A stretch of DNA of 37,441 bases, taken from the IMG/VR virus record IMGVR_UViG_3300027743_000058, positions 1 through 37,441 of that record; one strand, given 5' to 3'. The notes beneath the pieces were generated by a model. That model ran no database searches and was not told the origin of the DNA. It was given only the letters and a program-made list of their open reading frames with translations. The position numbers and the translations under genes were made by a program. How positions within the stretch are numbered: position 1 is the stretch's first letter; each line of letters starts with the position of its first letter. Below, in pieces: positions 19-16,570 of the stretch. Origin of the DNA: a virus.

Positions 19-1137
19 ATGCACACCATGCAGATTCAGGACACCGATTTCTTCGCCTTCGTGAAGATGATCTTCAAGGCCAGACGCACCCCCTACATCA
101 AAGGCCCGCCCGGCTCCGGCAAGTCCGCCATGACCGAGGCGCTGGCCCGCGAACTCAACGAATTCTACAAGGATGAGGGCGGCTACGGCTACTTCGAGAT
201 CGACATGTCGAAGGCCAACATTGCCGACTGGCAGGGCTTCCTGATGCCCGAGGATGAGACGATCATCGACGCCGACGGGCAAGAGGTGAAGATCAAGGCC
301 GGCAAGTACACCTATCCGTACTGGGCCTATGACAAGTTCACCGGACGCCCGATGCACACGTTCAAACGTGGCGTCATCGTGTTCGAGGAATGGGCACAGG
401 GCGAGCCGGAAGTGAAGCGCGCCGGGGCGTCGATGATCTACGGCAGGCGCATGGGGCTGTACCACTTCCCCGACTTCGACTGCATCCTGCTTGGCAACCG
501 CGACATTGATCGCGCCGGGGCGACCAAGGAATACGACCATATCATCAACCGGCTCACCATCGCCGAGATGAAGCCGACGCTGAAGAACTTCCTGATCGTC
601 GCGTCGGACTTCGGCATGACGCCGATCACCATGGCGTTCGCCGCCCGCAACACCGACAAGGTGTTCGCAGCCGTCGCGCCCAAGGAACAGGGCGCGTACA
701 TGACGCAGCGCTCGCTGCATGCGCTCGACGACATCGTCAAGGCAGGCATGAGCGAAGGCCGTGATCTGGATGACCCGATCATGCTGATCGCCGCCGCTGG
801 CACTGTCGGCATGGAGGGCGCGACCGACTACATGGCGTTCGCCAAGGCGCGTCATGAAATCCCGACAGTGTCGGAGGTTGTGCGCAACCCGTCAGGATGC
901 CGCATCCCGCACAAGCTCGACCTGATGACCTTCCTTGTCTACGACCTCGCGTCGAAAACCGACAGGGCCAACATCGCGGCTGTCGCCGAGTACATCGCGC
1001 GGCTGCAGTCGGACATGGCGTCGACCTACTTCGACGCGCTCACCCGGCGCGACAAGTCGATGATCAACACCCGTGAGTTCATCGCCTACTCGAAGGCCAA
1101 CCTGAGCCTCACGGCTGCGGTCGCCATGCGCCAGTAG
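19..1137 (+). CDS. MoxR-type AAA+ ATPase
   Basis: A 372-residue AAA+ ATPase of the MoxR/CbbQ-like type. Residues 29-36 read GPPGSGKS, a Walker A motif. Walker B is VIVFEEW, with the acidic pair at about residues 123-124. A sensor-1-like LLGNRD follows, and INRLTIAEM sits where MoxR proteins place the arginine-bearing segment. MoxR ATPases usually work with a von Willebrand factor A (VWA) protein to remodel or load metals into a target, and the next gene encodes exactly such a partner. The ATG at 19 has AGGA eight bases upstream. The substrate in this phage is unknown. The ATPase call is firm; the role is inferred from pairing. Confidence 0.88.
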   Translation: MHTMQIQDTDFFAFVKMIFKARRTPYIKGPPGSGKSAMTEALARELNEFYKDEGGYGYFEIDMSKANIADWQGFLMPEDETIIDADGQEVKIKAGKYTYPYWAYDKFTGRPMHTFKRGVIVFEEWAQGEPEVKRAGASMIYGRRMGLYHFPDFDCILLGNRDIDRAGATKEYDHIINRLTIAEMKPTLKNFLIVASDFGMTPITMAFAARNTDKVFAAVAPKEQGAYMTQRSLHALDDIVKAGMSEGRDLDDPIMLIAAAGTVGMEGATDYMAFAKARHEIPTVSEVVRNPSGCRIPHKLDLMTFLVYDLASKTDRANIAAVAEYIARLQSDMASTYFDALTRRDKSMINTREFIAYSKANLSLTAAVAMRQ

Positions 1138-6749: not shown

Positions 6750-7742
6750 ATGGAAAATGTGGTCTCGCTGCGCGCTACGCAGCCTTATGAGTTTCACCCG
6801 TTCGCCGATATCTGGCCGCTTATGGAAGGCGCTGCCTTCGAGGATTTCGCCACCGATATCGCCGCCAACGGGCTGCTGCAGCCGATCCTGCTCTACGACA
6901 ACAAGATACTCGACGGCCGCAACCGCTATAACGGCTGCATCGAGGCTGGCGTCGAGCCGCGCTACGAGCAGTCGGATGCGAAGAATGATGCGGAGGCGCT
7001 GGAACTGGTGTTCTCGCTCAACCAGCACCGTCGTCATCTGTCGTTCGAGCAACGTGCCTTCGCTGCCGCGAGATACGCCACTATAAAGCACGGAGGGGAT
7101 AGATTTTACAGCAAGTTATCCAGGGATAACTTGCTTCCAAATGATGACCCTGCACTTGGTCACGGTGGGCGTTCCATTCGCGAGGCCGCGAAAAAATTCG
7201 ATGTTGCTCCTGTATCCGTATCGCGTGCCCGCAACGTTATTGAGCATGGCGGTCTAGAACTTGAGAAGAAGGTTAAAACCAAGAAGATCGGCCTGCAGGC
7301 CGCTGCCAACGAGGTGCGTCCGAAACGCAGGGCGAAGACGGCTGTAAGCCAGAAACGTGGTTTGCCGACAGCGGCACGGGTGCCGGTCATCGACACCTCC
7401 AAGCGACGGCTGCTAACGCCGCAGGAAGTCGACCCGGAGTTCACCGGCACGTCGAACGAATTCACCACCAAGTACGGCCATGTGCAGATCGAGACGGCCG
7501 AGGAACGGGCAACCAACCGGTTTCTGGAGTGGACAGCGCATGTCCGCAAATGGGCGAAGGACTACAAGGAATTCCCGCTGTCGGAGATCGATCTCAACTG
7601 GCTGCGTTCACCACGCCCGAAGGACATCGAGCGCTTCCTTGAGGCCTACAACACGCTGAAACTGGTATTCGACAACATCCAGGCGATTCGCGACAAGGCG
7701 AAATCGCTGAAGAAACCCCTGAAGGAGAACGGCAATGAATGA
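6750..7742 (+). CDS. ParB-like protein with N-terminal ParB nuclease-like domain and HTH
   Basis: A 330-residue protein. Residues about 40-75 read GLLQPILLYDNKILDGRNRYNGC, the typical ParB N-terminal domain with its D-G-R-N-R loop. RRHLSFEQRAFAAARY and then SIREAAKKFDVAPVSVSRARNVI form the helical HTH part that follows in ParB/Spo0J-like proteins. The C-terminal half is basic, then acidic and helical. The ATG at 6750 is preceded by AGGGG. In phages such proteins may serve plasmid-like partition, transcriptional control or DNA nicking. No ParA ATPase is nearby, so a non-partition role is more likely. The next gene overlaps by eight bases. Confidence 0.82.
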   Translation: MENVVSLRATQPYEFHPFADIWPLMEGAAFEDFATDIAANGLLQPILLYDNKILDGRNRYNGCIEAGVEPRYEQSDAKNDAEALELVFSLNQHRRHLSFEQRAFAAARYATIKHGGDRFYSKLSRDNLLPNDDPALGHGGRSIREAAKKFDVAPVSVSRARNVIEHGGLELEKKVKTKKIGLQAAANEVRPKRRAKTAVSQKRGLPTAARVPVIDTSKRRLLTPQEVDPEFTGTSNEFTTKYGHVQIETAEERATNRFLEWTAHVRKWAKDYKEFPLSEIDLNWLRSPRPKDIERFLEAYNTLKLVFDNIQAIRDKAKSLKKPLKENGNE

Positions 7743-8884: not shown

Positions 8885-10738
8885 GTGAAACCTCTATTTC
8901 TGGACTTCGAAACGTTTTGGGCTGACGACTACTCCCTCCGGCAGATCACCCCCATCGAGTACATTAATTCGCCGCGCTTCGAGGCGCTCGGCTGCGCCTT
9001 CATTGATGGCAGCGGCAGCAAGGTATGGGTCGACGGCCCCGATCTTGAGGCGTTCTTCGAGGACGTCGACTGGGCCAACACGTTTGCCGTCTCGCACAAT
9101 GCGCTGTTCGACATGCTCATCCTGTCGAGTCGCTATGACCGGGTGCCGGCGATGTATGGCTGCACCCTGTCGATGGCGCGCAACTGGCTCAGTCATTCGC
9201 TGAAGTCGGTGTCGCTGGCGAGCGTCTCAAAATATTACGGGCTGCCTGACAAGATGGACACGGTGCAGAAGACCAAGGGCGTCAACTTCCTGCAGATGCG
9301 ACAGACACGGGCGCTGTACGACGAGGTCAGGCAGTACGCCATCGACGACGCCCAGAAATGCCGACAGATTTTCATGAACATCATGCAGGACGGCTTCCCG
9401 CACGGTGAGCTGGAGACCATCGACATGGTGATCCGCATGGCGACGCAGCCAAAGTTCGAGCTGGATTCATTCGTGCTCGCCGAGCATCTCGGCAATGTCA
9501 GGGCGAAGAAGCAGGCGCTGCTCGATGCCGCTGGCATCGACCAGGACAACGTGTCGGCGCTGATGAGCGACGGCGTGCTCGCCTCCATGCTGCTCAGGCT
9601 GGGCGTCCAGGTGCCGCTGAAGACCTCCAAGCGCACCGGCAGGCAGGCCTATGCCTTCGCCAAGACCGACAAGGAATTCGTCAGGCTGCTCGATCATGAC
9701 GAGCCGATGGTGCAGGCCATCGTGGCAGCCCGGCTGGGGATTAAATCTACGCTGGAAGAGAGCCGCACCGAGCGGCTGCTCGCCATCGGACGGGTGACCG
9801 ACAAGATGCCGGCGCCGCTCAGATATTCCGGCGCCCATACGCACCGCTTCTCCGGCGACTGGAACATCAACCTGCAGAATCTGCCGCGCGGGGGCGAACT
9901 CCGCCGGGCGTTTCGCGCCCCGGCGGGGGAGCTGGTGGTGGCTGTTGATGCGAGCCAGATCGAGGCTCGCATCAATGCCACCATCAGTGGGCAGACCGAT
10001 CTGGTCGACGAGTTCAGGGCAGGCAAGGATGTCTACTGCTCGTTCGCCAAGATCATCTACGGCTACGAGATCGACAAGCGGGTGCACGACGTCGAGCGCA
10101 AGGTCGGCAAGGTCAGCATCCTGTCGCTCGGCTACGGCTCCAGCGCCGAAGTGTTCCAGAACATGTGCCGGGTGCAGGGTGGGGTGACCATCACCGACAG
10201 CGAGGCAGCAGCCATCGTGCAGCTGTACCGCGCCCGCTACAGGCTCATCGTCAACAACTGGAACCATGCCCACAAGACCGTGCTGCCTTTGATCGGCAGC
10301 CTGTCACCGGATGCGATGAGCGAGTTCACATGGGGGCCGGTGAAGCTCGGCGTGAAGTCGCTGATCCTGCCCAACGGAAACAGGCTCCGTTACCGTGAGC
10401 TGCATCACGAGAACTTCGAAGGGACGTGGCGCTGGGTGTTCAAGCGCGGCGAGCAGACGCAGAAAGTCTACGGCGCCAAGCTGGTCGAGAACGTCACCCA
10501 GGCGCTCGCCCACCTGCATGTCATGGAGGTTGCCAAGCGGGTCGCCAAGGCGACCGACAACAGGTTGCGGCCGCAGCTGCAGGTGCATGACGAGCTGGTC
10601 TACGTGGTGCCGGAGAGCATCGCCGAGGCATGCCGCGAGCTTGTCGTCATGGAGATGTCGAAGGCCCCGGCGTGGTTGCCGACCGCGCCGCTGGCAGCCG
10701 AGGGCCATGTTGGAAAGACCTACTTCGATGCTAAGTGA
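8885..10738 (+). CDS. Family A DNA polymerase with 3'-5' exonuclease domain
   Basis: A 617-residue replicative polymerase. The exonuclease domain shows LFLDFETFW (D7, E9; Exo I), SHNALFDML near residue 71 (Exo II) and YAIDDAQ (Exo III). The polymerase domain shows motif A as VAVDASQIEARI with the catalytic aspartate at D355. Motif B is the RKVGKVSILSLGYGSS segment, and motif C is QVHDELV (H568, D569, E570). SGAHTHRFSGDWNINLQNLP is also typical of family A. There is no 5' nuclease domain, as in T7-type phage enzymes. The GTG at 8885 gives a start right at the exonuclease domain; the in-frame TTG at 8855 lies inside the upstream motif and is unlikely. Confidence 0.95.
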   Translation: MKPLFLDFETFWADDYSLRQITPIEYINSPRFEALGCAFIDGSGSKVWVDGPDLEAFFEDVDWANTFAVSHNALFDMLILSSRYDRVPAMYGCTLSMARNWLSHSLKSVSLASVSKYYGLPDKMDTVQKTKGVNFLQMRQTRALYDEVRQYAIDDAQKCRQIFMNIMQDGFPHGELETIDMVIRMATQPKFELDSFVLAEHLGNVRAKKQALLDAAGIDQDNVSALMSDGVLASMLLRLGVQVPLKTSKRTGRQAYAFAKTDKEFVRLLDHDEPMVQAIVAARLGIKSTLEESRTERLLAIGRVTDKMPAPLRYSGAHTHRFSGDWNINLQNLPRGGELRRAFRAPAGELVVAVDASQIEARINATISGQTDLVDEFRAGKDVYCSFAKIIYGYEIDKRVHDVERKVGKVSILSLGYGSSAEVFQNMCRVQGGVTITDSEAAAIVQLYRARYRLIVNNWNHAHKTVLPLIGSLSPDAMSEFTWGPVKLGVKSLILPNGNRLRYRELHHENFEGTWRWVFKRGEQTQKVYGAKLVENVTQALAHLHVMEVAKRVAKATDNRLRPQLQVHDELVYVVPESIAEACRELVVMEMSKAPAWLPTAPLAAEGHVGKTYFDAK

Positions 10739-11775: not shown

Positions 11776-12218
11776 CCGACATCATGGAGCGGATAAACAA
11801 CGCTGTGTATGTCGTCAGCGTCGTCGAGAAAAATAAGACTTTGATTGCGGCCAAGCACGAGATCGAGCGGCTGCGGGCCATCATCAACCAATACGGCATG
11901 GACACCCGCAATGTGCCAATAGCGGAGCATATGCGGTTCGTCGCTGAGCAGCTTGAGATCGAGCGGCTGACGTTGCAGGACGTTCCCGTAACGCAAATGC
12001 GGGAAGCCGCACGGGCATGGCGTGATCACAGCAGGGGCTATCGAAGCCTGCATGACCGCATTGATGAGTTCATCAATGAGATCGAGCGGCTGCGGGCCGA
12101 AGAGCCGAACAACGAGCGACCGCGCAGTCAGGTGCACGTCCATGCTCTGCCGGATGGAACTTACACGGCGGCCGCAGCGGGGCCGCCGCATCCAGTAAAG
12201 GATCATGGATATGAGTAA
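11772..12218 (+). CDS. Hypothetical coiled-coil protein, 148 aa
   Basis: Not recognised. AAGGAGG sits seven bases before the ATG. The module EIERLRA occurs twice (near residues 30 and 108), with a related EIERLTL between them, so the protein is a repetitive helical rod. The C-terminal quarter (VHVHALPDGTYTAAAAGPPH) looks like a strand followed by a flexible tail. It overlaps the following nuclease gene by eight bases. Confidence 0.68.
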   Translation: MTDIMERINNAVYVVSVVEKNKTLIAAKHEIERLRAIINQYGMDTRNVPIAEHMRFVAEQLEIERLTLQDVPVTQMREAARAWRDHSRGYRSLHDRIDEFINEIERLRAEEPNNERPRSQVHVHALPDGTYTAAAAGPPHPVKDHGYE

Positions 12219-12894
12219 GCCGTTCTCGTGGTCGTGGTCACGCCTCAAGAACTGGCGCACCTGCCCGAAGCGCCACTGGCATGTCGACATCGAGAAGGAC
12301 TTCGTCGAGGAGGAAGGTGACGCGTTGAAGTGGGGGCACGAGGTGCACGCAGCGATGGCCAACCGCATCGGCAAGGGCACGCCGCTGCCGGAAGCCATGG
12401 CGCATTACGAGGACTGGCCGACGCGCTTCGCCAAGCTCAAAAGCAAGGCCAGGGTGCTGGTCGAGAACAAGCTGGCGATGGGCAAGGACTTCCAGAAGAC
12501 CAGCTTCTTCGACAGTGCGACGTGGTTCCGCGGCGTCGTCGACGCACTGGCGCTGGTGCCGCAGTCCAGCTTCGCCATCGCCATCGACTGGAAGACCGGC
12601 GCCAACGTCAACCCCGAGTACGAACAGCTCGGGCTGAATGCGCAGCTGATCTTTGCCAACCATCCGGAGATCGACCGCGTCGCCACGATCTATGTCTGGC
12701 TCGGCCATGACACCCAGACGGTGCACAGCTACCAGCGCGACGAGATGCTGTCGCTGTGGAACGGGTTGATGCCGGAGGTGAAGAAGCTGGAGGAGGCGCA
12801 CCGCACGGTGACCTATCCGCCGAAACCATCGGGCCTGTGCAAGCGGCACTGCCCGGTGACCAGTTGTCCATACCATGGGAGGGGGTCTCGATGA
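12211..12894 (+). CDS. PD-(D/E)XK exonuclease, Cas4/RecB-like, with probable iron-sulfur cysteines
   Basis: A 227-residue nuclease. HEVHAAM provides the early histidine/acidic motif of RecB/Cas4-type enzymes. RGVVDALAL (D111) and AIDWKTG (D126, K128) form the D...DxK catalytic core, and EQLGLNAQL supplies the conserved Gln. A lone N-terminal cysteine (RTCPKRHW) and a C-terminal C-x3-C-x4-C cluster (LCKRHCPVTSCPYH) match the four-cysteine arrangement that holds a 4Fe-4S cluster in Cas4 and AddB. It probably resects or processes DNA ends in phage recombination or replication. The ATG at 12211 has AAAGGA eight bases upstream; the ATG at 12205 is too close to it. Confidence 0.88.
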   Translation: MSKPFSWSWSRLKNWRTCPKRHWHVDIEKDFVEEEGDALKWGHEVHAAMANRIGKGTPLPEAMAHYEDWPTRFAKLKSKARVLVENKLAMGKDFQKTSFFDSATWFRGVVDALALVPQSSFAIAIDWKTGANVNPEYEQLGLNAQLIFANHPEIDRVATIYVWLGHDTQTVHSYQRDEMLSLWNGLMPEVKKLEEAHRTVTYPPKPSGLCKRHCPVTSCPYHGRGSR

Positions 12895-13208
12895 GTGCCG
12901 AGCACGAGCGCGACAAGGGCCTTCAGCAGGTCTGGCGTGAGGCGTGGCAGCGGGCGGCGCTGGAACGGGTCGTGCGCCTGCCTCCTGGCTGGGAAGGCAC
13001 CGGAGAGGACATACGGCTGCATGTGCTGGGCACGGGACTGGTGCTGCCGCACGACCCGCATGCCTGGGGCGCGCTGATCAACAACTGCCAGATCAAAGGC
13101 GTGCTGGAGAAGACCGGCGAGCGCCGCAAGATGAAAACCAAAACCAGCCACGCCCGATCAACCGACGTGTTGCGAAGAGTGTGGCCAACAACACCGCATG
13201 GAGATTGA
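12891..13208 (+). CDS. Hypothetical protein, 105 aa, directly before the Tas-like gene
   Basis: Not firmly recognised. The product has the segment PPGWEGTGEDIRLHVLG followed by PHAWGALINNCQIKGVLEKTG and a basic end (RRKMKTKTSHARSTDVLRRVW). This resembles a small class of phage proteins with a winged-helix-like body and a basic tail. The ATG overlaps the nuclease stop (ATGA) and follows GGAGGGGG. Its stop directly abuts the start of the Tas-like gene, so the two are very likely co-translated, and it could be an accessory factor of that system. Confidence 0.66.
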   Translation: MSAEHERDKGLQQVWREAWQRAALERVVRLPPGWEGTGEDIRLHVLGTGLVLPHDPHAWGALINNCQIKGVLEKTGERRKMKTKTSHARSTDVLRRVWPTTPHGD

Positions 13209-14003
13209 ATGAGCTTCGAACTGAATCCCATTACCATCCTGACGCGCGACCTGAAGAAAGCGTCAGCCACCCTGACCGACACCGAGGCCAGGTTCCTTGT
13301 CGATGCCTACTACTCGATGCAGGAGAACCGCATCCGCTCCGACAATCAGGTGCGTTCCATGGTGGCCGAGCCGCACGATGTGATCGGCTGGCTGGCCGAG
13401 CAGTCGGAATCCCTGGAGCATCAGATCAAGGGGGCGCTCGATGTTTATTCGAAAAACCATCCTGTGGGAGGATGGCTGCATAGCGTCAAGGGCGTCGGTC
13501 CTGTCATTGCCGCCGGGCTACTGGCGCATATCGATATCCACAAGGCTCCCACCGTCGGACACATCTGGCGCTATGCCGGGATGGACCCGACGAGCAAGTG
13601 GAACAAGGGCGAGAAGCGGCCGTGGAACGCCAGCCTGAAGGTGGTGTGCTGGAAGCTGGGCGAGAGCTTCGTCAAGGTCAGCGGCTACGAGGACGCCTAC
13701 TACGGGCACATCTACAAGCAGCGCAAGGACAAGGAGACCGCCGCCAACGAGCGGGGTGCCTTTGCGCAGCAGGCGGTAGACTCCCTGAACGCCAAGAAGA
13801 TTAGCAAGGACACCGATGCCTACAAGGCCTACTCGACGGGGAAACTTCCCCCGGCCCATCTACACGCTCGGGCGAAGAGATACGCCGTTAAACAGTTTCT
13901 GGCCGATCTGCATGGGGAAATGTACCGCACGATTCTGGGCGAGGAGCCGCCGCTGCCGTATCCCATTGCGATCCTCGGCCATGCGCATCTCAGGAAGCCA
14001 TAG
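13209..14003 (+). CDS. Tas-like Nop/IS110-related RNA-binding protein beside the guide array
   Basis: A 264-residue protein. An N-terminal helical/coiled-coil half (about residues 1-88) leads into a helix-hairpin-helix, LHSVKGVGPVIAAGLLAHI (90-108), and then YAGMDPTSKWNKGEKRPWN and SLKVVCWKLGESFVKV. The second part looks like the Transposase_20 domain of IS110 enzymes. Tas proteins of TIGR-Tas systems carry a Nop domain that is structurally close to both box C/D Nop proteins and IS110. No DEDD/RuvC or HNH motif is visible, and the IS110 catalytic serine region (usually SG) reads NKG, so it is probably a nuclease-less RNA-guided DNA binder. GGAG lies six bases upstream. The repeat array starts five bases after the stop codon. 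A plain transposase call would miss this. Confidence 0.82.
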   Translation: MSFELNPITILTRDLKKASATLTDTEARFLVDAYYSMQENRIRSDNQVRSMVAEPHDVIGWLAEQSESLEHQIKGALDVYSKNHPVGGWLHSVKGVGPVIAAGLLAHIDIHKAPTVGHIWRYAGMDPTSKWNKGEKRPWNASLKVVCWKLGESFVKVSGYEDAYYGHIYKQRKDKETAANERGAFAQQAVDSLNAKKISKDTDAYKAYSTGKLPPAHLHARAKRYAVKQFLADLHGEMYRTILGEEPPLPYPIAILGHAHLRKP

Positions 14004-14008
14004 GTTTT

Positions 14009-14653
14009 GAGAGAACCAACGAACGAGAGCGAGCCGTGAGATACGAGAGCACCAGTAGACATGAGCGAACCAACGGCATCGAGAGCACCACATCAAAGGA
14101 GTGAGCCAAGGTTCTTAAGAGCACCAAGAACTGGAAGCGAGCCATGTGGAACGAGAGCACCATCGGACATAAGCGAGCCACTCGGTCAGAGAGAACCAAC
14201 GAACGAGAGCGAGCCAAAAGACAAGAGAGAACCCTATAGGGGAAGCGAGCCAGCTACACGGAGAGAACCATAGTTGAGAAGCGTCAGCCATGTGGGACGA
14301 GAGCACCCTGGATAATGAGCGAGCCACGTAGCCGGAGAGCACCAACAGCCACTGAGCGAGTCATGCAGGGCAAGAGCACCATATCAGGTGAACGTTAGCC
14401 ATCTCTTACGAGAGCACCAAATGCCAGGAGCGAGCCATCAAGTACGAGAGCACCGAAGAGGCGAAGCGAGCCATCGCAGACGAGAGGACCATGTGTAAGA
14501 AGCGAGTCATCCAGCATGAGAGGACCATCAGCACAGAGCGAGCCATCGACCCAGAGAGAACCATCGACAAAGAGCGAGCCAACCAGCGCGAGAGCACCAA
14601 CGATAATGAGCGAGCCATATAGCAGAAGAGAACCATGATATATGAGCGAAATT
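14009..14653 (+). repeat. TIGR-type array: alternating 10-nt handles with 8-nt variable spacers
   Basis: Thirty-six handles alternate strictly between type A (consensus GAGAGCACCA) and type B (consensus RAGCGAGCCA), and the last B is truncated (14644). Type A starts at 14009, 14045, 14081 and so on; type B at 14027, 14063, 14099 and so on. Each is followed by 8 variable bases, giving an 18-nt half-period and a 36-nt unit. Spacers after A include acgaacga, gtagacat, catcaaag, agaactgg, tcggacat, tatagggg, tagttgag; after B tgagatac, acggcatc, aggttctt, tgtggaac, ctcggtca, aaagacaa. There are 35 spacers, one of 9 nt (14345-14353). Three spacing slips occur: 12-nt handles at 14279 and 14390, and the 9-nt spacer. 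In TIGR-Tas systems arrays of this form are processed into 36-nt dual-spacer tigRNAs. Probably co-transcribed with the upstream Tas-like gene, though the direction is not proven. Confidence 0.88.
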
Positions 14654-14666
14654 AGTTCTTGCAATC

Positions 14667-14683
14667 GTAACGCAATGTGTTAC
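14667..14683 (+). promoter_or_regulatory. GTAAC-type motif with dyad at the end of the array
   Basis: GTAACGCAATG resembles the motif at 5598 and 8846 and here forms a dyad, GTAAC-N7-GTTAC. TTGCAA (14659-14664) and TACATA (14681-14686) with a 16-bp gap could be a sigma-70-like promoter overlapping it. It would drive the VRR-NUC/helicase unit separately from the array. Confidence 0.45.
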
Positions 14684-14685
14684 AT

Positions 14686-15042
14686 ATGACGACGCCCGAA
14701 GCTAAAGCGAAAGCGAAGGTTCGGGCGATCCTGTCTAAGTACCCAAGCATGTACACGTACTGGCCGGTACCGTCAGGATTCGGAAGGACGACCATCGACG
14801 TCATCGGTTGCTACCGGGGACGTTTCTTCGGTGTCGAGGTGAAGGGCGAAGGCAAGAAGCCGACCCTGCGCCAGACACAGGAGCTGACCTCCATGGCGAA
14901 GGCCATGGGGAAAACCTTTGTCGTCATCGGACCCAGCGATCCGGTGCTCGACGATCTGAAACAATGGCTGGACGAACTCACCGAGACCATACCGAATGAT
15001 CCTGATCTCCCACCAGACACGGTCCGTCGTCGTCGAATATAG
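14686..15042 (+). CDS. VRR-NUC-type PD-(D/E)XK nuclease
   Basis: A 118-residue stand-alone VRR-NUC domain. The core reads TIDVIGCYRGRFFGVEVKG, with D38, E51 and K53 as the D...ExK metal-binding residues, and RQTQEL supplies the following glutamine. Phage VRR-NUC proteins are thought to act on branched or recombining DNA. The ATG at 14686 is chosen because an upstream in-frame GTG (14677) lies within the motif. The gene overlaps the helicase gene by 47 bases. Its place right after the guide array, next to a nuclease-less Tas-like protein, makes it a possible but unproven effector. Confidence 0.88.
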   Translation: MTTPEAKAKAKVRAILSKYPSMYTYWPVPSGFGRTTIDVIGCYRGRFFGVEVKGEGKKPTLRQTQELTSMAKAMGKTFVVIGPSDPVLDDLKQWLDELTETIPNDPDLPPDTVRRRRI

Positions 15043-16570
15043 ACCCGACATCGGCGCACTGTTTCCGCACGGGAAGAGGTTTCAGTTCAACGGCAGCGAC
15101 CTGATCGCGGTGCCTCACGGCATCGACGAGACGAAGATGCTGCGCAATCTGGACCTCCCCGTGCCGGCACCCATCGTCGAGCACTACGGATTCCCGTCGG
15201 CCGACGGGCTGCGGCCGTTCGCCAAGCAGCTGCTGACTGCCTCGGCGATGACCATGAACCCGTTCTTCTACGTGCTGAACGGCATGGGCACCGGCAAGAC
15301 CAAGGCCTGCCTGTGGTCGTTCGACTACCTGAGGCGGGAAGGCAAGGCGCACCGCATGCTGGTGGTGGCGCCGCTGTCAACGCTCGACTTCACATGGGCC
15401 AAGGAAATTTTCCGCACGCTGCCGCACCTGAAGGTGGCGGTGCTGTCGGGCACTGCCGCCAAACGCAGGAAGCTGCTGGCTTCGGATGCCGACATCTACA
15501 TCATCAACCACGACGGCGTGAAGGTGCTGAGCCAGGAGCTGTTCCAGCGTCTCGACATCGACGTCATCTGCTTCGACGAGGCTGCCGCCTACAGGAATGC
15601 CAGGGCCGAGCGCTCGAAGATCGCCCGGCAGCTGGCCAGGAACCGCAGCTTCGTGTGGGGGATGACCGGCTCACCCACCCCATCGGCGCCGACCGATGCG
15701 TTCGGGCTGGCGTGGCTGATCACGCCGAAGACTGCGCCGCGGTCGTTCGTGCAGTTCCGCCAGGACACCATGCTGCAGGTGTCGCAATTCCGCTGGGTGC
15801 CGCGCCGCGACGCCGCCGACACGGTGGCTCAGATACTGCAGCCGTCCGTCCGCTATACGCTGGATGAGATCGTCGAGCTGCCGCCGGTAGTCGAGCGCGA
15901 GATCGAGGTGCCGATAGGAGATCGGCAACGCGCCGTCTACGACGCGCTGCGCGACCACGCCTCCGCCCTGCTGCGTGAGGGGACCATCACAGCTGCGAAT
16001 GGGGGAGTCGTCTTCACCAAGATGCTGCAGGCCAGCATCGGATGGGTGTACGGCGACGAAGATAGGAAGATTTTCGCGCTCGACAATCACGAGCGCATCG
16101 ACGCGCTGCTCGACATCATCGAGTCCGCCGAGCGCAAGGTGATTGTCTTCTCGCCCTTCAAGTCAGCGACGGCCGGGATCAGCGAGGCGCTGAAGAAACA
16201 CAAGATCGAATTCGCCGAAGTCACCGGCGACACCACGTCCAAAGAGCGGGCGGAAATCTTCCGCTTCTTCCAGGACACTGACAAATACAAGGTGCTCAAT
16301 GCCCACCCCGAATGCATGGCGCACGGGCTGACGCTGACCGCCGCCGACACCATCGTGTGGTTCGGGCCGGTGACCAAACTGGAAATATTCGAGCAGGCCA
16401 ACGCGCGCATCACCCGCGTCGGCCAGACGCACAAGCAGCAGGTGATCAAACTGGTGGGCACCCCGGCCGAGCGCATGGTGTACCGCAGGCTGGGGGACAA
16501 GCATGAACTACAGGAGTCCATCCTCGACATGCTCGCCGAGCTGGCAGGCAATGGAGAGAACGGTGGCTAA
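14996..16570 (+). CDS. SNF2-like superfamily 2 DNA helicase
   Basis: A 524-residue SF2 helicase/translocase. Motif I is NGMGTGKTKA (G96 onward). Motif Ia is LVVAPLSTL, motif II is CFDEAAAY (D194, E195) and motif III is WGMTGSPTP. Motif V is AHGLTLTAADTIVWF and motif VI is EQANARITRVGQ; QANARITRVGQ with the following THKQQVI is typical of SNF2-type phage helicases. It probably remodels replication or recombination intermediates. The ATG lies inside the end of the VRR-NUC gene, and the 3' end overlaps the methyltransferase gene by eight bases. Confidence 0.93.
   Translation: MILISHQTRSVVVEYRPDIGALFPHGKRFQFNGSDLIAVPHGIDETKMLRNLDLPVPAPIVEHYGFPSADGLRPFAKQLLTASAMTMNPFFYVLNGMGTGKTKACLWSFDYLRREGKAHRMLVVAPLSTLDFTWAKEIFRTLPHLKVAVLSGTAAKRRKLLASDADIYIINHDGVKVLSQELFQRLDIDVICFDEAAAYRNARAERSKIARQLARNRSFVWGMTGSPTPSAPTDAFGLAWLITPKTAPRSFVQFRQDTMLQVSQFRWVPRRDAADTVAQILQPSVRYTLDEIVELPPVVEREIEVPIGDRQRAVYDALRDHASALLREGTITAANGGVVFTKMLQASIGWVYGDEDRKIFALDNHERIDALLDIIESAERKVIVFSPFKSATAGISEALKKHKIEFAEVTGDTTSKERAEIFRFFQDTDKYKVLNAHPECMAHGLTLTAADTIVWFGPVTKLEIFEQANARITRVGQTHKQQVIKLVGTPAERMVYRRLGDKHELQESILDMLAELAGNGENGG

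What the first reader, a model, noticed from the sequence alone, without database searches (positions are those of the whole stretch)
13209..14653. TIGR-Tas-like RNA-guided system inside a phage replication module
A Nop/IS110-like gene (13209-14003) is followed five bases later by an array of 36 ten-base handles. Two handle types alternate strictly (GAGAGCACCA-like and RAGCGAGCCA-like), and each is followed by 8 variable bases. The half-period is 18 and the full period 36. TIGR-Tas systems combine a Nop-domain Tas protein, related to box C/D snoRNPs and IS110, with arrays processed into 36-nt RNAs that carry two short spacers and guide DNA binding. The match in period, dual handles and neighbouring protein is too specific to be chance. 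No HNH or RuvC motif is seen, so this appears to be the nuclease-less form. It would ordinarily be annotated as a transposase plus empty DNA.
Basis: partly seen in the sequence, partly recalled or inferred. Interest (0 to 1): 0.97.

Follow-up and report, generated by a model that had tools for sequence, protein, structure and literature searches.

The report
Phage RNA-guided DNA-binding system (TIGR-TasA)
A phage carries a small cassette made of one RNA-binding protein gene and an array of 18 short paired guides. It is a genuine new example of the recently described TIGR-Tas RNA-guided systems, and its relatives give first leads on what such guides may recognise in nature.

Summary
Window 13209-14003 encodes a 264-residue nuclease-less Tas protein (TasA). 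It matches solved TasR and TasH by sequence (E 1.4e-15 and 4e-12) and fold (top ten PDB hits all TasR/TasH). It runs directly into an 18-unit dual-repeat array, ending at about 14650: edge RAGCGAGCCA, 8-nt spacer A, loop GAGAGCACCA, 8-nt spacer B, with truncated edges at both ends. The edge equals that of the characterised Salicola phage array. All 32 viral relatives first fetched carry such an array by tas, and edge and loop ends vary together across loci. Sister phages (75-90% identical flanking DNA) lack only this cassette; in one pair the empty site is exact. Among phages whose tas genes are 93-96% identical by synonymous change, arrays share few units. So this is an accessory cassette with fast-changing guides. 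No guide matches its own phage. One cultured relative (Acidobacteriaceae KBS 96) gives a lead: one guide matches, 16/16 in the correct geometry, the start of an excisionase/AlpA-like gene in a second integrated element, and another matches 14/16 nearby. Verdict: new member of a known kind; silencing of competing mobile elements is a testable but unproven role.

The parts
13209..14003 (+). tasA: 264-aa nuclease-less Tas (Nop / IS110-type RNA-binding) protein
   Evidence: PDB sequence hits TasR 9mty 1.4e-15 and TasH 21kl 4e-12; AF2 model pLDDT 84.6, Foldseek top ten all TasR/TasH; Pfam Transposase_20 1.9e-5 at residues 90-129 only
13996..14000 (+). 5'-truncated first edge repeat AGCCA, inside the 3' end of tasA; the stop codon lies in spacer A of unit 1
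   Evidence: sequence; same layout in related loci
13996..14649 (+). TIGR dual-repeat array: 18 units of edge RAGCGAGCCA - spacer A - loop GAGAGCACCA - spacer B, period 36
14644..14649 (+). 3'-truncated last edge repeat GAGCGA
12885..14664 (+). accessory segment: absent from sister phages L200/L201, whose flanking DNA is colinear on both sides
   Evidence: blastn breakpoints 12884-12894 and 14665-14686
12891..13208 (+). small ORF (105 aa) upstream of tasA inside the variable segment; role unknown
   Evidence: no Pfam match
12205..12894 (+). PDDEXK exonuclease, left flank of the cassette
   Evidence: PF12705 3.3e-10
14677..15042 (+). endonuclease of phrog_93 (syntenic with an annotated VRR-NUC in a Rhizobium phage), right flank
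14996..16570 (+). SNF2-type helicase, right flank
   Evidence: PF00176 1.6e-19

Best explanation
This is a TIGR-TasA system. The array is transcribed with tasA and cut by host RNases into 36-nt tigRNAs, each with spacers A and B held between an edge and a loop repeat. A TasA dimer binds one tigRNA and, by pairing spacer A to one DNA strand and spacer B to the other, binds and bends a 16-bp target without cutting it. Shown here: protein family and fold, array anatomy, link between gene and array, accessory status, fast guide turnover, absence of self targets. Inferred from PMC12045711: processing, dimer, DNA binding. Inferred with less certainty (about 0.4): the cassette lets its phage block transcription or replication of competing mobile elements (other prophages, satellites, sister phages), not its own genes.
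For: Protein. Array; no intrinsic fold, as expected of dual-repeat and not stem-loop arrays. Arrays beside tas in 32 of 32 viral relatives, 753 units, in four of five further viral loci and in 12 bacterial-genome relatives. Ends of edge and loop repeats vary together (both GT... in G013-G020/G025; both ...CCG in G021/G029-G031). Edge equals the Salicola SpTIGR edge, whose RNAs are 36 nt. Accessory cassette. Guide turnover with tas under purifying selection. Competing-element lead in KBS 96.
Against: No RNA or binding data. No terminator was found after the array, although published arrays usually have one. No window guide has a convincing target in the window or in sister-phage DNA. The competing-element role rests mainly on one genome: 0.04 perfect hits were expected there by chance, and a chance perfect hit also turned up in an unrelated genome. 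Tests in Halomonas and Propionivibrio gave nothing convincing, though they covered only some of their guides.
Confidence: 0.9

Rival explanations
1. A decayed IS110-family transposase next to a minisatellite, with no guide function.
For: Pfam names the protein Transposase_20 and PHROG calls it transposase.
Against: TasR/TasH score far better than IS110 (1.4e-15 and 4e-12 by single sequence; 5.5e-5 for IS621 by profile). No catalytic DEDD or Ser domain. The frame is intact and under purifying selection in relatives: nearly all changes are at third codon positions. The array accompanies the gene in all of the first 32 loci.
Confidence: 0.03
2. The repeat is a coding sequence, since 36 nt is 12 codons.
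For: Short open frames cross parts of the array, such as 14061-14273 + and 14395-14664 -.
Against: Every frame has 3-10 stops and 9-10-nt spacers break the phase. Variation lies in 8-nt blocks at all positions, while handles are kept.
Confidence: 0.01
3. A TIGR-TasA that regulates the phage's own genes or assists its own integration.
For: Gene regulation and help to integrases were suggested as possible for TasA in PMC12045711.
Against: None of 753 units has a perfect target in its own contig, and near matches equal those of wrong-geometry controls. Sister phages live without the cassette.
Confidence: 0.1
4. A TIGR-TasA aimed at host chromosomal genes, to reprogramme the host.
For: Nuclease-free binding would suit repression; the window's host is unknown, so this was not excluded.
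Against: In KBS 96 the only perfect match of all six guides in 6.7 Mb falls in another integrated element, not in a housekeeping gene.
Confidence: 0.2

Closest known systems
TIGR-TasH of Salicola phage CGphi29 (SpTIGR; PMC12045711, PDB 21kl)
   Same: Phage-borne; same edge repeat RAGCGAGCCA, 10-nt repeats, 8-nt spacers, 36-nt period; homologous Nop region
   Different: The window protein has no HNH nuclease; loop repeat differs (GAGAGCACCA against AAGACAACCA); SpTIGR has a hairpin with a T run after its array, the window has none found
TIGR-TasA (e.g. Flavonifractor plautii locus, PMC12045711)
   Same: Solo Nop-type protein beside a dual-repeat array
   Different: That array has 9-nt spacers (18 nt in total); sequence not compared directly here
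TIGR-TasR (PDB 9mty)
   Same: Best sequence and fold match; CCA-type box C, paired spacers
   Different: TasR carries a RuvC nuclease; its repeats start UG and its spacers are 9 nt
IS110 bridge-RNA transposases (IS621, ISCro4)
   Same: Related RNA-binding domain
   Different: No catalytic domain here, an array instead of one bridge RNA, no sign of transposition

Membership tests
TIGR-Tas | Protein with Tas-type Nop domain | tested here: met
   TasR 1.4e-15, TasH 4e-12; Foldseek top ten all Tas
TIGR-Tas | Array of two alternating 8-12-nt repeats with short spacers beside the gene | tested here: met
   18 units, 10-nt repeats, 8-nt spacers; arrays in 32 of 32 relatives
TIGR-Tas | 5'-truncated first edge and 3'-truncated last edge | tested here: met
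   AGCCA at 13996-14000 and GAGCGA at 14644-14649; seen generally in the related arrays
TIGR-Tas | Box C and box D ends shared by edge and loop and varying together | tested here: met
   Shared ends within each locus in most arrays; GT/GT and CCG/CCG classes covary; G001 is an exception at box C
TIGR-Tas | Rho-independent terminator after the array (typical, not universal) | tested here: not met
   None found on the + strand; the array lies inside an apparent operon. The source paper calls this typical, so it is not treated as excluding membership
TIGR-Tas | Processing into 36-nt tigRNAs bound by Tas | not testable with these tools
   Needs small-RNA sequencing
TIGR-Tas | Tandem-spacer binding of both DNA strands | not testable with these tools
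   Needs binding assay
TIGR-TasA subtype | No HNH or RuvC domain | tested here: met
   264 aa; the best match to TasR starts at TasR residue 122; no nuclease family matched
IS110 transposase | DEDD catalytic domain | tested here: not met
   Only the RNA-binding part matches
TIGR stem-loop array type | Palindromic stem-loops in place of edge repeats | tested here: not met
   Fold z-score -0.30 over the first 300 nt

The most novel reading that the evidence does not exclude
TIGR-TasA cassettes are exchangeable anti-competitor weapons of phages: nuclease-free guides silence control genes or repeated operators of other mobile elements in the same host. Supporting leads. (1) In Acidobacteriaceae KBS 96 two of six tigRNAs of a TasA prophage match one other integrated element (int at tRNA-Glu, XRE, excisionase/AlpA-like, rep, terS, capsid, protease) at 16/16 and 14/16 with zero gap and correct geometry. 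(2) One guide of phage G019 matches the core of a palindrome (CTAACANTGTTAG) dispersed 21 times in the early region of a sister phage.
Probability: 0.35. Interest if true: 0.9.

Novelty: new member of a known kind. Interest (0 to 1): 0.62.

Why it matters
The locus would normally be filed as a transposase plus empty DNA. The discoverers of TIGR systems stated that natural targets, guide origin and the role of nuclease-less TasA are unknown (PMC12045711). The locus and its relatives make those questions testable: presence/absence pairs of otherwise similar phages, close phages with shuffled guides, and one cultured lysogen with a concrete predicted target. If TasA silences satellites or rival prophages, phages have a natural RNA-guided counterpart of CRISPR interference.

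Tried and rejected
Self targets: none among 753 units in the correct geometry, counts equal to three wrong geometries. Targets in tas-less sister phages: no excess for the window. For the freshwater group the only multi-hit guide was CAGCCTAA/TAACACTG; across all DNA held there was no overall excess, and a wrong-geometry control also gave one unit with many hits. Palindromic targets as a general rule: no. Second operator match (G017 against the G038 palindrome): dropped, mainly one 8-nt half. Scanning IMG/VR for three shared freshwater targets: 41, 9 and 8 hits, judged close to the chance rate, and no contig clearly carried several targets. Host-genome test in Halomonas NO4 (4 of 7 guides, gap 0 only): one 15/16 match in a gene resembling a metabolic enzyme, taken as chance; Propionivibrio twin guides: none. 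Rfam: nothing in the region. Coding-repeat and stem-loop readings: rejected. Spacer similarity inside the window array: not above chance.

Full report
OBSERVATION. The array is real. Handle scanning gives 18 edge-type and 18 loop-type ten-mers in strict alternation from 13991 to 14635, then a truncated edge at 14644-14649. Identity at lag 36 is 0.56 against a maximum of 0.32 in 200 dinucleotide shuffles. Of the 35 spacers between handles, 32 are 8 nt. The first edge is cut at its 5' end and lies in the last codons of the gene; the stop codon sits in the first spacer. The longest stop-free stretch in any frame is 87 codons and all six frames have stops.

PROTEIN. The 264-residue product matches Pfam Transposase_20 over residues 90-129 only and phrog_4285, labelled transposase. 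Against the PDB its best hits are TasR 9mty (1.4e-15, from TasR residue 122 on) and TasH 21kl (4e-12). With a profile of 25 relatives, TasR reaches 2.7e-21, TasH 6.4e-13 and IS621 only 5.5e-5. The AlphaFold2 model (pLDDT 84.6, pTM 0.81) has TasR and TasH as its ten best structural matches, ahead of IS621 and ISCro4. The nuclease parts of TasR and TasH are missing, so it is TasA in the terms of PMC12045711.

RELATIVES. A scan of IMG/VR gave 32 loci at 48-68% identity. All 32 carry a 36-nt dual-repeat array by the gene, 753 units in all with the window; several contigs carry two or more arrays. Edge repeats are mostly GAGCGAGCCA-like and loops vary. Ends of edge and loop change together: both start GT in G013-G017, G019, G020 and G025, and both end CCG in G021, G029, G030 and G031. 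This is the box C/D covariation expected for a symmetric Tas dimer. First edges lack their 5' part and last edges their 3' part in the related arrays as well. The Salicola phage array, shown experimentally to give 36-nt RNAs, has the same edge RAGCGAGCCA. Twelve relatives in bacterial genome assemblies also have arrays, including Acidobacteriaceae KBS 96 and Halomonas NO4.

CASSETTE. The window phage has a replication module shared with Rhizobium phage RHph_TM3_14A (ATPase, metallopeptidase, polymerase A, RecB-like exonuclease, VRR-NUC, SNF2 helicase). That phage has small genes between exonuclease and VRR-NUC and no tas. Closer sisters L200 and L201 align at 74-84% on both sides but not between window 12885-12895 and 14664-14685. 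In the freshwater group, L121 (with tas) and L123 (without; helicase 97% identical) align up to 8718 and again from 10001 in L121, while in L123 the two blocks meet at position 10001. The inserted 1.28 kb is tas plus array and nothing else. Fifteen of 16 further contigs searched whole, among them the 60-70 kb sisters, have no tas match; the one match is a divergent copy. So gene and array travel together and are dispensable.

GUIDE TURNOVER. Among G013, G014, G016, G017 and G019, tas genes are 93-96% identical with nearly all changes at third codon positions. Yet pairs of arrays of 8-13 units share only 0-4 identical units; others differ by 1-3 bases, and order is changed. The protein is conserved while the guides diversify. 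This is what an arms race would leave; the mechanism of change is unknown.

TARGETS. With the geometry inferred from TasR (spacer A next to the reverse complement of spacer B, gap 0-2; my derivation from the cut sites described), no unit has a perfect target in its own contig, and one- and two-mismatch counts equal those of wrong geometries. The window's 18 guides have no notable target in five sister contigs or the Rhizobium phage stretch. Two leads remain.

LEAD 1: In KBS 96, all six guides were searched in the 6.7-Mb genome. Guide 2 has one perfect zero-gap match. It lies in codons 9-14 of an HTH_17 gene (phrog_66, excisionase and transcriptional regulator). That gene is in another integrated element with integrase beside tRNA-Glu, XRE regulator, rep-like gene, small terminase, capsid and prohead protease. 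Guide 5 matches 14 contiguous bases of 16 in the rep-like gene 0.9 kb away; guides 3 and 6 reach 13/16 in the same 20 kb. Four other stretches of this genome, about 80 kb, gave only two three-mismatch hits. Expected perfect hits in the genome over six guides and three gaps: 0.042. The element could be a short prophage or a capsid-forming satellite. In a marine satellite family AlpA is necessary and sufficient for activation (PMC10803314), which would make such a gene a sensible target. This is suggestive and not proof: one chance hit also occurred in an unrelated genome.

LEAD 2: Phages of this group carry their own dispersed palindromes (for example CCTGATACGTATCAGG in G015, TGTGACCTAGGTCACA in G023/G024, CTAACANTGTTAG in G020, G037 and G042), resembling in layout the repressor stoperators of mycobacteriophages (PMC6550527). 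The last guide of G019 (CAGCCTAA/TAACACTG) covers 13 bases of the CTAACANTGTTAG element with its flank; its score is 22 bits against a maximum of 14 in shuffled pairings. The element occurs 21 times in the early region of sister G037. G020, itself a tas carrier, has six copies.

CONCLUSION. Membership in TIGR-TasA is as secure as sequence can make it. The biochemical mode of action is borrowed from the characterised members. The role against competing mobile elements fits the accessory status, the guide turnover, the lack of self targets and the two leads, but rests on few matches.

Noticed in passing
G015, G020, G023, G024, G035, G037, G038, G042, G047 and Rhizobium phage RHph_TM3_14A (L120): Many phages of this set have their own dispersed palindrome in 6-33 copies, in several cases inside early genes, like stoperators but symmetric. 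Possible repressor or replication sites with phage-specific identity.
   Followed up: partly
G007, G021, G026, G029, G030, G031: Several contigs carry two to six separate TIGR arrays around one tas gene; G007 has one array on the opposite strand.
   Followed up: no
L181, L185, L186, L190: Helicase relatives with a 36-nt array (edge AACGAGTCA-like); L181, L185 and L186 also show a divergent TasA (26-28% identity). In L181 and L185 it lies at another place in the phage, suggesting independent gain.
   Followed up: partly
L266 (Mycobacterium phage Euphoria gp70) and 75 similar records: Mycobacteriophage 'transposase' genes are distant TasA relatives (28% identity), with no 36-nt dual array within 3 kb in the one checked; they may use another array type or none.
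   Followed up: partly
window 6750-7742: ParB-like gene (phrog_4715) about 5.5 kb upstream of tasA. ParB-like genes are operonic with some TasA loci (PMC12045711), but here they are not adjacent.
   Followed up: no
window 19-1137 and 1160-2551: ATPase plus VWA/metallopeptidase (DUF2201) pair at the start of the module, conserved with the Rhizobium phage and freshwater relatives.
   Followed up: no
window 14019-14026 and 14199-14206: Spacer ACGAACGA occurs in both unit 1 and unit 6, paired with different A spacers: possible sign of unit recombination or duplication.
   Followed up: no
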